Assembly (NCBI GenBank): GCA_902568465.1
Contig: CACFQR010000007.1
Location: forward strand, 1-64,000
DNA length: 64,000 nucleotides
From: an uncultured Pelagibacteraceae bacterium
GTDB lineage: Bacteria; Pseudomonadota; Alphaproteobacteria; Pelagibacterales; Pelagibacteraceae
Reading direction: 5' to 3'
Shown: positions 23,068 to 26,296 of the stretch, in pieces
Layout of the letters: each line of letters opens with the position of its first letter
How positions within the stretch are numbered: the stretch's first letter is position 1
Notes under the pieces: generated by a model
Seen by the model: only the letters and a program-made list of their open reading frames with translations
Database searches by the model: none
What the model was told of the DNA's origin: nothing
Made by a program: the position numbers and the translations under genes

Positions 23068-23143
23068 TGGTGCCCCCACACGGACTCGAACCGCGAACCT
23101 ACTGATTACAAATCAGTTGCTCTACCAATTGAGCTATAGGGGC
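23068..23143 (-). tRNA. tRNA-Thr (anticodon TGT), intact copy
   Basis: Complete cloverleaf on the minus strand: acceptor GCCCCTA/TGGGGGC, D arm GCTC..GAGC, anticodon stem ACTGA/TCAGT with loop TTTGTAA, T stem CGCGG/CCGTG, discriminator A and encoded CCA. Its first 44 nt are repeated 2.36 kb to the right, so it marks the left end of an island. Confidence 0.97.
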
Positions 23144-23181
23144 GCAAAAAGTTTTTTAGTTGAAAATAACAAATTAAGCAA
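23100..23181. repeat. Left direct repeat (tRNA-Thr 5' half plus promoter)
   Basis: Covers tRNA positions 1-44 and the promoter on the minus strand. The first 40 bp match 25458-25497 exactly; the remainder aligns with several differences. Confidence 0.85.
23153..23181 (-). promoter_or_regulatory. Promoter of tRNA-Thr
   Basis: Minus-strand TTGCTT (23181-23176), a 17-bp spacer and TAAAAA (23158-23153), ending 9 bp before the tRNA. The same boxes with the same spacing are kept at the remnant copy, which supports a functional promoter. Confidence 0.55.
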
Positions 23182-23282
23182 GCCTAATAAAGATAATAGA
23201 CCATTATTCAATTTTTAAAATATTTTTCATTACTTCGTAATTTCAAGCGAAAGTTGCTTAAAGTGACTTATTGTGACCGATC

Positions 23283-23302
23283 TGTAGTCCATTCCGTAGT
23301 CC
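23283..23302 (+). repeat. Paired GTAGTCC repeats, left end of island
   Basis: TGTAGTCC (23283-23290) and CGTAGTCC (23295-23302), starts 12 bp apart. A similar pair occurs at the right end. They resemble arm-type recombinase sites, by inference. Confidence 0.5.
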
Positions 23303-23373
23303 ATTTATTTACTGTTTATATTTCACAATTCTACACGACTGACTCTAAGATAGTTTCATTATATGATTTGACG

Positions 23374-24099
23374 ATGGAAAAAGAGAATGAATTAAATTCT
23401 AAGGATATATACAATTTTATTCCTGAAGATAAATTTGAAAGTTGCGTTAAAAAATTATATGAAAAATATAATAAACAAGCATTATCTAAAGATTTTTTCA
23501 AACATAAAATTGATCCTTTTTCTGCTTTAACACAAATTTGTTTTCAAGAAAAAAATTATGATCAATGGACTTCATTTGAAAAAGAAAGACAATTACAAAA
23601 AAGTTTACAAAACTATATAGGAGAATTTCATCAAGACATAATTAGAAATCTAGATGGTTGGGAAGATATGGAAATTACAGATGCAATAAATAAAGAAAAA
23701 AAAATTTTTGTAGAAGTTAAAAATAAACACAATACTGTTACCAAAGCTAAATTGACTAAAGTATATGACGATTTAGCGTCCAACTTGAAAAAATATAAAA
23801 AATATACTGCATATTATATGTATATTATAAGAGAAAGTGATTATGTAGATAAACCTTTTACTCCTTCAGATAATACTAAAAAAAGAAAATCAAAAAAAAA
23901 AAGTAGACAAAAGAGAGAAAATCTAAGAGAAATTGATGGAGTCAGCTTTTATAAAAAGATTACGAAAGATAAAGACTTTTTAAGAAAAATTTACATTGAA
24001 TTGTTTAATAAATTATTAAAAATAAATAGAAAAAATTCTTTTTCAGCTATCAAAGATGATGATCGTTTTATTGAATATTTTACAAAAACTTTTGATTAA
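23374..24099 (+). CDS. Type II restriction endonuclease, Eco47II/SinI-like
   Basis: 241 residues from the ATG at 23374. The centre resembles what I recall of the Eco47II family (GGNCC/GGWCC cutters): QKSLQNYIGEFHQDII (residues 75-90), then a PD-(D/E)XK-type site with Asp103 and Glu114-Val-Lys116 in FVEVKNKHNTVTKAKL. The neighbouring cytosine methyltransferase fits as the protective partner. A longer frame from TTG 23254 is rejected because it would run through the GTAGTCC repeats and adds no family-like sequence. There is no clear ribosome site before 23374, so the start is uncertain. Target sequence is not known. Confidence 0.75.
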   Translation: MEKENELNSKDIYNFIPEDKFESCVKKLYEKYNKQALSKDFFKHKIDPFSALTQICFQEKNYDQWTSFEKERQLQKSLQNYIGEFHQDIIRNLDGWEDMEITDAINKEKKIFVEVKNKHNTVTKAKLTKVYDDLASNLKKYKKYTAYYMYIIRESDYVDKPFTPSDNTKKRKSKKKSRQKRENLREIDGVSFYKKITKDKDFLRKIYIELFNKLLKINRKNSFSAIKDDDRFIEYFTKTFD

Positions 24100-25310
24100 T
24101 ATCTGTTTAAGGATCTTATAATTTCATAACCTATATACTTTGCTAAATTAACAGGGACTGCATTTCCTATTTGTTTATATCTCGAATTCAAATTTCCAGA
24201 AAACATCCAGTTATCAGGAAATGTTTGAATTCTGGCATATTCTCTTACTGACAAAGGTCTATCTTCTTTAGGATGTGCTCTCTCGGTTTGCTTCATCGCC
24301 GGAGCAGTAGTTAACGTAAGTGAAGGCTCATCCCAACTCAATCGTCTTGCAATACCAGTTTTGCCTCCTCCTAAGTGCAGACTTCCTTTCATATATTCTT
24401 TCTTCATCTTTTCAGGTAAATCATTCCAGTTTCCTCCGGGAGGAACCTTTCTCATAATCTGTTGTTTTCTTTTTGTATATTTTTGATATTCAGAATTTGG
24501 AACATTAGTTTTATAAAGCCTACCTTTTTTTAATGCATCTTTAACGGTATAAGGTTCAGAAATTTTATTGGGGTAGTTAAATTTTAAACCAGATCCTTTT
24601 TTAATTCCAATCAGGAAAAGCCTTTCTCTTTTTTGGGGGACTTCGTAAAATATTGACTGACATACTTGAGGAGCAATGACTTTGTAGCCTATTTCTTCCA
24701 TTATATTAATTATTGTTTTTAGAGTTTTGCCACCATCGTGAGAAATTAATCCTCTAACGTTTTCTGCCAAACATATTCTAGGCTTTATAATTTTTACAGC
24801 TCTGGCAAATTCATAAAATAAAGTACCTCTGGTATCTTTAAAGCCAAGTTTTTTTCCAGCATAACTAAATGCTTGGCAAGGGAATCCTCCTGATACCACA
24901 TCAGCACCTTTAAGTTTTTTAAATTCACCATCACTAATTTTATGAATATCTTTGTGAAGAATGTTCCATTTAGGTCTATTTTTTTTTAAAGTTTCACAAG
25001 AATCTCGATCAATATCATTAGCAAACAAGCATTTAAGCCCAGCCTTTTCAAAGCCTAACGCTAAACCTCCGGAGCCAGCAAACAATTCAACGACTGTCCA
25101 TTTTTTTTTAGGTTTTGGTTTCTTATATTTATCTTTAGAAAACAAAAATGATAATTTATCAAATTTCTTTAGTTCCGATTTTTGAATAAAAGTTTTCCCG
25201 TTTGGTTTAATAGTTTTTATTGTTTTTTTTCTTATCCAACTATTTACTGTTGATTTGCTTGTAGAAAGCATATCGGCAACTAATTCGACGGAATAATGAT
25301 TACTAAACAT
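24096..25310 (-). CDS. DNA (cytosine-5)-methyltransferase with N-terminal helix-turn-helix
   Basis: 404 residues. Residues 1-55 form an excisionase/MerR-like helix-turn-helix (YSVELVADMLSTSKSTVNSWIRKK). Then all main m5C methyltransferase motifs follow: I FAGSGG (77-82), IV GGFPCQAFS with catalytic Cys145, VI ENVRG (183-187), VIII QKRERLFLIG (226-235), a target-recognition region (about 250-345), IX RPLSVREYARIQTFPD and X QIGNAVP (380-386). It methylates cytosine at the site cut by the convergent endonuclease and overlaps that gene's end by 4 bp. The N-terminal domain may repress transcription of its own operon, as in other fused enzymes; that part is inference. Confidence 0.93.
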   Translation of the reverse strand: MFSNHYSVELVADMLSTSKSTVNSWIRKKTIKTIKPNGKTFIQKSELKKFDKLSFLFSKDKYKKPKPKKKWTVVELFAGSGGLALGFEKAGLKCLFANDIDRDSCETLKKNRPKWNILHKDIHKISDGEFKKLKGADVVSGGFPCQAFSYAGKKLGFKDTRGTLFYEFARAVKIIKPRICLAENVRGLISHDGGKTLKTIINIMEEIGYKVIAPQVCQSIFYEVPQKRERLFLIGIKKGSGLKFNYPNKISEPYTVKDALKKGRLYKTNVPNSEYQKYTKRKQQIMRKVPPGGNWNDLPEKMKKEYMKGSLHLGGGKTGIARRLSWDEPSLTLTTAPAMKQTERAHPKEDRPLSVREYARIQTFPDNWMFSGNLNSRYKQIGNAVPVNLAKYIGYEIIRSLNRY

Positions 25311-25457
25311 TTATTATTTTATTGATTCGTTATATTGGATTTTATCATAAAATTAAATTTATTAAGTAAGAATTCGTAGTCCTTCTGTAGTCCAAGTATT
25401 TTTTTTGAATCTCTTAGTGAGGATCTATGCTAGTATTTTGACTTGGATTGGGAGCGA
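25311..25457 (-). promoter_or_regulatory. Upstream region of the methyltransferase gene
   Basis: AT-rich sequence between the methyltransferase start and the half-tRNA. It holds the right GTAGTCC pair and no terminator-like hairpin with a T run in the minus direction, so transcription from the remnant tRNA promoter could pass through. A weak local -10 (TATGAT on the minus strand) is also possible. Confidence 0.35.
25375..25393 (+). repeat. Paired GTAGTCC repeats, right end of island
   Basis: CGTAGTCC (25375-25382) and TGTAGTCC (25386-25393), starts 11 bp apart, in the same direction as the left pair but with the order of the C/T variants reversed. Confidence 0.5.
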
Positions 25458-25503
25458 TACTGATTACAAATCAGTTGCTCTACCAATTGAGCTATAGTGG
25501 CGT
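25458..25503 (-). pseudogene. tRNA-Thr remnant (5' half only)
   Basis: Retains the 5' acceptor strand, D arm, and anticodon arm with TGT of tRNA-Thr, then diverges at position 45 so the T arm and 3' end are missing. The acceptor strand also carries a change (GCCACTA instead of GCCCCTA). It cannot form a tRNA. Confidence 0.85.
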
Positions 25504-25511
25504 GAAAGATT

Positions 25512-25540
25512 TTTTTAGTTCAAAATAATGAATTAAGCAA
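25512..25540 (-). promoter_or_regulatory. Promoter of the displaced half-tRNA
   Basis: Minus-strand TTGCTT (25540-25535), 17-bp spacer, TAAAAA (25517-25512): identical boxes and spacing to the intact tRNA-Thr copy. It points toward the methyltransferase gene. Confidence 0.5.
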
Positions 25541-25549
25541 GTTAAAAAA

Positions 25550-26296
25550 TTATTTTTTTTTAAACATGTTTACATAGTGAAAAACTATTGCAGCAGAATT
25601 GGATATATTAAGACTCTCAATTTTTTTGTTAATATTTATTTTTAATAAAAAATCAGAACCTTTTATAGTTTGATATTTTAAACCATAGCCTTCTGAACCA
25701 AACAATAGAACGTTATTTCCATTCCAGTCATGATCAGTAAAATTTTTTTCTCCATTTTTATCAAAACCACATACCCAAAAATTTTTTGTTTTTAAATGTT
25801 TTAATGTAGTTTTTATATTTGAAACTTCAAAAATTTTTATATGTTCAGTACAACCACTTGCGCTCTTATATAAAAGTTTACTCTCTCCTGGAAAAGATCT
25901 TTCTTTAACTATTATACCGTCTATATTAAATGAAGCGGCACTTCTAATTATTGAACCAATATTTCTTGGATCAGTTACATCTTCTAAGGCTACAAAAGTA
26001 ATATTTTCTTTTTTTGTTGAATTTATGTAATCCTTTAAATTTTCTTTCTCTAAATGTTCTATTTCAGCGATCAAACCTTGATGAGATATTTGATCTTTAG
26101 TACATAACCGGTCTAATTCGTTTTTTGTTTTATAAAATATTTTAATATTTCTTAAGAGACTTAAATTTTGGTTTTCTTTATTAAGATTTTTTTTAGAATC
26201 TTCGGTTAAAAAAACCTTTAGTACTTTTCTATTAGGGTTTTTTAAGGCCTCTATAACAGCGTGCTTTCCAGCAATCAAAAATGATGATTTTTTCAT
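25550..26296 (-). CDS. rlmB: 23S rRNA (guanosine-2'-O)-methyltransferase, RlmB/TrmH family
   Basis: 248 residues. The N-terminal substrate-binding domain starts with LIAGKHAVIEALKNPNRKVLKVFL. The C-terminal SPOUT domain shows the family motifs ALEDVTDPRNIGSIIRSAASFNIDGIIV (motif 1, with the Asn-Ile-Gly-Ser core), FGSEGYGL (motif 2) and ISNSAAIVFHY (motif 3), which form the trefoil knot that binds S-adenosylmethionine. It is cytoplasmic and modifies the ribosomal peptidyl-transferase region. Close paralogues modify tRNA, so the exact target is inferred. Its stop lies 10 bp from the tRNA-Thr remnant promoter. Confidence 0.88.
   Translation of the reverse strand: MKKSSFLIAGKHAVIEALKNPNRKVLKVFLTEDSKKNLNKENQNLSLLRNIKIFYKTKNELDRLCTKDQISHQGLIAEIEHLEKENLKDYINSTKKENITFVALEDVTDPRNIGSIIRSAASFNIDGIIVKERSFPGESKLLYKSASGCTEHIKIFEVSNIKTTLKHLKTKNFWVCGFDKNGEKNFTDHDWNGNNVLLFGSEGYGLKYQTIKGSDFLLKININKKIESLNISNSAAIVFHYVNMFKKK

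What the first reader, a model, noticed from the sequence alone, without database searches (positions are those of the whole stretch)
23100..25540. Integrase-free restriction-modification island at tRNA-Thr
A 40-bp exact direct repeat from tRNA-Thr flanks a 2.36-kb block that holds only an endonuclease and a methyltransferase. SAR11 genomes are very compact, so a selfish R-M cassette at a tRNA with no integrase is notable. It may be a minimal mobile unit that uses a recombinase from elsewhere, a prophage remnant, or a fixed defence locus.
Basis: partly seen in the sequence, partly recalled or inferred. Interest (0 to 1): 0.78.

Follow-up and report, generated by a model that had tools for sequence, protein, structure and literature searches.

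The report
Integrase-less defence cassette mimicking phage attachment site
A tiny restriction-modification cassette in an uncultured SAR11 bacterium belongs to a family of insertions that carry no integrase of their own; their ends copy the attachment site of temperate ocean phages that use the same tRNA gene, so they most likely move by borrowing a phage enzyme.

Summary
A 2,358-bp insertion sits at tRNA-Thr(TGT) between two exact 40-bp copies of the tRNA 5' half and holds only an Eco47II-type REase and a C5-MTase. In 17 of 29 relatives' loci, tRNA-Thr lies directly beside rlmB: the empty site.

New anatomy: the element supplies the tRNA's 5' half and promoter, not the usual 3' half. Each end carries a tandem GTAGTCC pair, like lambda-type integrase arm sites.

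It is a family: the same ends occur in five more elements in four other SAR11 genomes. The five readable cargoes all differ and none includes an integrase; two elements lie in tandem. The left end is 96% identical between two species whose ilvD is 80% identical.

Candidate helpers: three temperate phage lineages (viral contigs) carry the same tRNA 5' half as attP, with TAGTGC arm sites (one base from the window's; an 18-nt exact match to another element) and an integrase gene nearby. A fourth lineage shares the core but has other arms.

Verdict: a CIME-like defence cassette moved in trans. Site-specific insertion is near certain; use of a phage integrase is likely but unproven. No phage with GTAGTCC arms was found.

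The parts
23068..23143 (-). tRNA-Thr(TGT), intact; chimeric after insertion: host 3' half plus element-borne 5' half
   Evidence: ARAGORN; alignment with empty-site relatives
23100..23139 (-). attL core: 40-bp exact repeat, anticodon stem-loop to 5' end of the tRNA
23144..23283 (.). element left end carrying the replacement tRNA promoter (minus strand: -35-like TTGCTT at 23181-23176, -10-like TAAAAA at 23158-23153, 17-bp spacer); 96% identical to the G012 element, 86% to the G019 element
   Evidence: promoter hexamers by inspection
23284..23302 (+). left arm-type sites: GTAGTCC at 23284-23290 and 23296-23302
23374..24099 (+). Eco47II-family type II restriction endonuclease (PF09553), 241 aa
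24096..25310 (-). C5-cytosine DNA methyltransferase (PF00145, TIGR00675) with N-terminal HTH_17, 404 aa; convergent with the REase, overlapping by 4 bp
25376..25393 (+). right arm-type sites: GTAGTCC at 25376-25382 and 25387-25393
25400..25439 (+). conserved right-end block TTTTTTTGAATCTCTTAGTGAGGATCTATGCTAGTATTTT, shared (with divergence) with the G012, G019, G048 and G011 elements
25458..25497 (-). attR core: displaced host copy of the tRNA-Thr 5' half
25498..25541 (.). displaced end of the host tRNA 5' half (acceptor stem G-to-T at 25498) and the original host promoter (minus strand TTGCTT 25540-25535, TAAAAA 25517-25512)
   Evidence: promoter hexamers by inspection
25550..26296 (-). rlmB (SpoU-family rRNA methyltransferase), right flank and original neighbour of tRNA-Thr

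Best explanation
This is a non-autonomous integrated element. It inserted by lambda-type (tyrosine integrase) site-specific recombination in the anticodon / 5'-half region of tRNA-Thr. Its circular form would carry right arms - tRNA 5' half - left arms, which is the layout of a phage attP. On insertion it replaces the host's 5' half and promoter with its own, so the tRNA stays expressed. It encodes no integrase. The most likely source of the enzyme is a co-resident or infecting temperate SAR11 phage that uses the same tRNA 5' half and TAGTNC-type arm sites. The cargo is a type II R-M system that would protect the host from other phages and is addictive in itself. Shown: anatomy, empty sites, shared ends with unrelated cargo, a tandem array, phages with matching attP and integrase. 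Inferred: excision and insertion by the phage integrase in trans, cell-to-cell transfer inside phage particles or by some other route, and defence activity.
For: Exact 40-bp att repeat. Empty sites in 17 of 29 relatives' rlmB loci. Arm pairs at both ends, same orientation, absent at the same positions from all eight empty sites checked. Six elements with homologous right ends in five genomes: G000, G012 twice, G019, G048, G011. Five readable cargoes, all different, none with an integrase. Tandem head-to-tail array in single-cell genome AG-404-E02, which is G012. Left end 96% identical between G000 and G012 although ilvD is 80% identical. Phage contigs carry the same 5'-half core, with arms at +134 to +157 and -66 to -43 (elements +173 to +194 and -93 to -71) and an integrase gene nearby. 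An 18-nt arm segment is identical between phage A and the G048 element. Phage B's 41-bp core is identical to the tRNA-Thr of several SAR11 genomes.
Against: No phage with GTAGTCC arms was found, so the exact helper of the window's element is unidentified. The phage integrase has no match in 397 SAR11 genomes. No circular or packaged form was seen. The host genome is 80% complete, so an unseen helper or host recombinase is possible. Beyond core and arms, element ends and phage attP show no obvious similarity.
Confidence: 0.72

Rival explanations
1. Prophage remnants: each locus is a former prophage at tRNA-Thr that lost everything except att sites and cargo genes.
For: The phage attP and these elements share the tRNA 5' half and similar arm sites.
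Against: Elements in different species share homologous left and right ends (86-96% left-end identity) that do not resemble the phage ends outside core and arms, while cargoes are unrelated. No phage gene was recognised in any of them. Independent decay would not converge on the same ends.
Confidence: 0.1
2. Cassettes of a larger autonomous integrative element (not a phage) with its own integrase, not yet sampled; CIME-type deletion derivatives moved by that relative.
For: CIMEs are thought to form this way (PMC3146451 proposes it for Dehalococcoides ssrA islands without integration modules). The genomes are incomplete.
Against: In the genomes sampled only the integrase-less form carries these ends; the only integrases found with this core are phage-borne.
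Confidence: 0.15
3. A host recombinase (the single Xer-like protein) or homologous recombination between tRNA copies moves or expands these cassettes.
For: The Xer-like gene is the only tyrosine recombinase seen in the genome. Tandem copies with 40-bp identity could exchange by homology.
Against: Conserved lambda-style arm pairs at similar distances on both sides are a feature of phage-type integrases that bind core and arm sites, not of Xer or homologous recombination (own knowledge).
Confidence: 0.05
4. A fixed vertical defence locus with a chance tRNA duplication.
For: None beyond the locus being intact.
Against: Relatives lack it and have the empty site. Cargo differs between genomes at the same ends.
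Confidence: 0.01

Closest known systems
cis-mobilizable elements (CIMEs), e.g. integration-module-free Dehalococcoides ssrA islands (PMC3146451)
   Same: att-flanked island without integrase or transfer genes; tandem accretion at one RNA gene; movement presumed to depend on a relative's recombinase
   Different: Dehalococcoides islands use a serine recombinase at ssrA. Here the att sites carry lambda-type arm pairs, the candidate helper is a temperate phage, and the 5' half with promoter is replaced.
additive flexible genomic islands with tRNA-fragment repeats in streamlined marine or freshwater bacteria (Actinomarinales PMC7771536; Methylopumilus PMC10872708)
   Same: small variable cassettes bounded by partial tRNA direct repeats in streamlined genomes
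   Different: The passages read there describe repeats of the last part of the tRNA, or do not say which half, and give no arm sites or helper. Here the 5' half is used, and arm sites and candidate helper phages are identified.
Phage satellites and anti-phage islands that rely on a phage for excision (PLE, PMC6002521; PICMI, PMC10803314)
   Same: small island with likely anti-phage role that depends on a phage function
   Different: From its abstract, PLE 1 encodes its own integrase. These cassettes encode no recombination, replication or packaging gene that could be recognised.
Tycheposons (described via PMC10872708)
   Same: tRNA-bordered cargo elements in marine bacteria
   Different: Tycheposons are described as 4-200 kb with a tyrosine recombinase; none here.
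Type II R-M systems of the Eco47II / C5-MTase kind
   Same: both genes are ordinary members
   Different: Only the mobile context is unusual.

Membership tests
cis-mobilizable element (CIME) | flanking att sites from site-specific integration | tested here: met
   40-bp exact repeat, empty sites
cis-mobilizable element (CIME) | no integrase and no transfer genes | tested here: met
   only R and M genes; other elements likewise without integrase
cis-mobilizable element (CIME) | tandem accretion next to other elements using the same att site | tested here: met
   G012 contig (L091) holds two in tandem; the window's own copy is single
cis-mobilizable element (CIME) | mobilised by an autonomous helper with matching att sites | not testable with these tools
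   phages with matching core and TAGTGC arms found; mobilisation not observed
phage satellite | transfer in helper phage particles | not testable with these tools
   no viral contig carrying the element ends was found; very short elements may be under-represented in that collection
phage satellite | encodes regulation, replication or packaging genes | tested here: not met
   no such gene in the window's element
temperate prophage | integrase and structural genes | tested here: not met
tycheposon | tyrosine recombinase within the element | tested here: not met
type II restriction-modification system | REase and MTase genes adjacent | tested here: met
   PF09553 and PF00145; MTase motifs PCQ, ENV and QKRER present in the translation
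type II restriction-modification system | both enzymes active on the same site | not testable with these tools
   needs expression; GGNCC expected from the Eco47II family name (own knowledge)

The most novel reading that the evidence does not exclude
SAR11 carries a family of minimal 'att-mimic' cassettes: no genes for their own movement, only cargo (often plausibly anti-phage) between ends that imitate the attP of temperate SAR11 phages, including arm sites whose variable base (GTAGTNC) may track the integrases of different helpers. The cassettes would pirate the integrase of the phage family they compete with for the same tRNA.
Probability: 0.45. Interest if true: 0.8.

Novelty: new variant of a known kind. 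Interest (0 to 1): 0.63.

Why it matters
SAR11 genomes are highly streamlined and poor in recognisable mobile elements, and how they gain and lose phage defences is unclear. A cassette that carries only cargo and an imitation phage attachment site would be a very low-cost way to spread defence genes, and would tie the spread of defence directly to temperate phage infection. It gives a simple sequence signature (GTAGTNC pair - TTTGAATC block - tRNA half) with which to find such cassettes, and a testable prediction about integrase specificity.

Tried and rejected
Searching for phages with GTAGTCC arms: none (the one hit, L093, has no tRNA half and is chance). Looking for the phage integrase in INPHARED, in 120 relatives and in 397 family genomes: none. 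Other genus integrases (L129, L143-L145) sit by tRNA-Ser, -Lys or -Cys, or no tRNA, and have no such arms. L125-L128 hits are intact tRNAs. G359, G216 and G133 motif hits judged chance (4 control hits at the same stringency; G133 has no tRNA half). GGNCC avoidance: the three TAGTGC-armed phages have 0 GGNCC against about 25 expected, host window 47 against 47.5. Eco47II cuts GGNCC (own knowledge), so this fits past exposure, but other sites (GCGC, CTTAAG) are also at zero and other marine phages show milder depletion, so it is only suggestive. The HTH_17 (excisionase-like) domain on the MTase was considered as an excisionase; a PADLOC MTase profile spans it, so it looks like a family feature.

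Full report
WHAT IS THERE. The window lies in a SAR11 genome: same-genus relative G012 is the Pelagibacteraceae single cell AG-404-E02. tRNA-Thr(TGT) is at 23068-23143 on the minus strand. The 40 bp at 23100-23139 recur exactly at 25458-25497, and weaker identity continues to 25541. Between them are only an Eco47II-family REase and a C5-MTase, convergent and overlapping by 4 bp. The repeat is the 5' half of the tRNA plus about 42 bp upstream. The -35/-10-like pair TTGCTT-N17-TAAAAA is present upstream of both copies (by inspection). Phages usually replace the 3' half of a tRNA (own knowledge); here the 5' half and promoter are replaced. The right-hand copy, next to rlmB, has a G-to-T change in the acceptor stem, as expected of a half no longer in use.

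INSERTION. Of 29 rlmB loci from relatives, 17 have an intact tRNA-Thr directly beside rlmB (alignment). No close homologue of the MTase was found in the other 22 genus genomes; the two hits are 35-37% identical.

ARM SITES. Inside each end is a tandem pair of GTAGTCC, 12 bp apart on the left and 11 bp on the right. These are the only such pairs in the window. No shuffle of 5,000 gave a shared tandem 7-mer pair at both ends, and eight empty-site relatives have none there.

A FAMILY OF ELEMENTS. Motif and DNA searches found the same ends elsewhere. (a) G012, one 8.7-kb contig, two elements in tandem: one of about 7.3 kb (MTase, NOV_C protein, SNF2 helicase, ParB-like, PRAI-like) and one of about 1.3 kb with two small ORFs. 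(b) G048: 1.8 kb, putative sugar O-methyltransferase (TIGR04371), GTAGTGC arms. (c) G019: about 0.8 kb, one 153-aa ORF, GTAGTAC arms, displaced core lost. (d) G011: right end only at a contig edge, arms more divergent. The five cargoes that can be read (these and the window's) differ, and none includes an integrase. The left end is 96% identical between G000 and G012, and 86% between G000 and G019, while ilvD is 80% and 78% identical. This supports horizontal movement, although non-coding and coding DNA are not strictly comparable. The displaced tRNA half was found in 4 of 397 family genomes; this is a lower bound, since tRNA-Thr differs in sequence in the larger genera.

CANDIDATE HELPERS. 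Viral contigs L064/L081 (B), L154/L157/L158/L159 (A) and L155/L156 (C) carry the tRNA-Thr 5' half with no 3' half, flanked by TAGTGC sites: two or three on the 5'-half side, one or two on the other. A tyrosine integrase gene lies about 0.1 to 1 kb further on where the contig reaches it (PF00589/PHROG 1), and a repressor-like regulator was recognised in L081. Phage A's right arms share 18 nt exactly with the G048 element. Phage B's core equals the tRNA-Thr of several SAR11 genomes, including G019 and G048, over 41 bp. A fourth lineage (L166-L168, integrase 44% identical) uses the same core with one extra base but GCATAC-like arms. Arm sequence therefore varies between integrases while the core stays nearly the same, which is what arm-site recognition predicts.

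MECHANISM. The circular element would have the phage attP layout: right arms - core - left arms. I therefore infer integrase supplied in trans by a tRNA-Thr phage. This was not observed. No phage with the window's GTAGTCC arms was found, and no provirus with this integrase was found in 397 genomes. How the cassette passes between cells is open.

COMPARISON. The closest kinds are CIMEs (Dehalococcoides ssrA islands lacking integration modules, PMC3146451) and tRNA-repeat additive islands of streamlined marine bacteria (PMC7771536, PMC10872708). The features I have not seen described, within the limited literature search made here, are the conserved arm pairs matching temperate phages, the 5'-half-plus-promoter replacement, and the SAR11 setting. 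I therefore call it a new variant of a known kind.

Noticed in passing
L034:7880-8720 (G019): About 0.8-kb member of the element family with one 153-aa ORF; displaced tRNA core missing beyond the right end, so it may be immobilised.
   Followed up: partly
L166-L168: Phage lineage with the same tRNA-Thr 5'-half attP but GCATAC-type arm repeats and a 44%-identical integrase: a natural contrast for arm-site specificity.
   Followed up: partly
L064, L081, L156, L159: GGNCC, the expected Eco47II-family site, is completely absent from three tRNA-Thr phage lineages (0 against about 25 expected) but not depleted in the host window.
   Followed up: partly
L034, L035, L037: In some relatives the tRNA-Thr/rlmB interval holds several kb of other genes (in L034 and L037 including surface-polysaccharide-type genes), so the interval is a wider variable region.
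   Followed up: no
L091:1459-8549 (G012): Possible defence operon: N4/N6 MTase, NOV_C nuclease-like protein, SNF2 helicase, ParB-like protein; no full PADLOC system named.
   Followed up: partly
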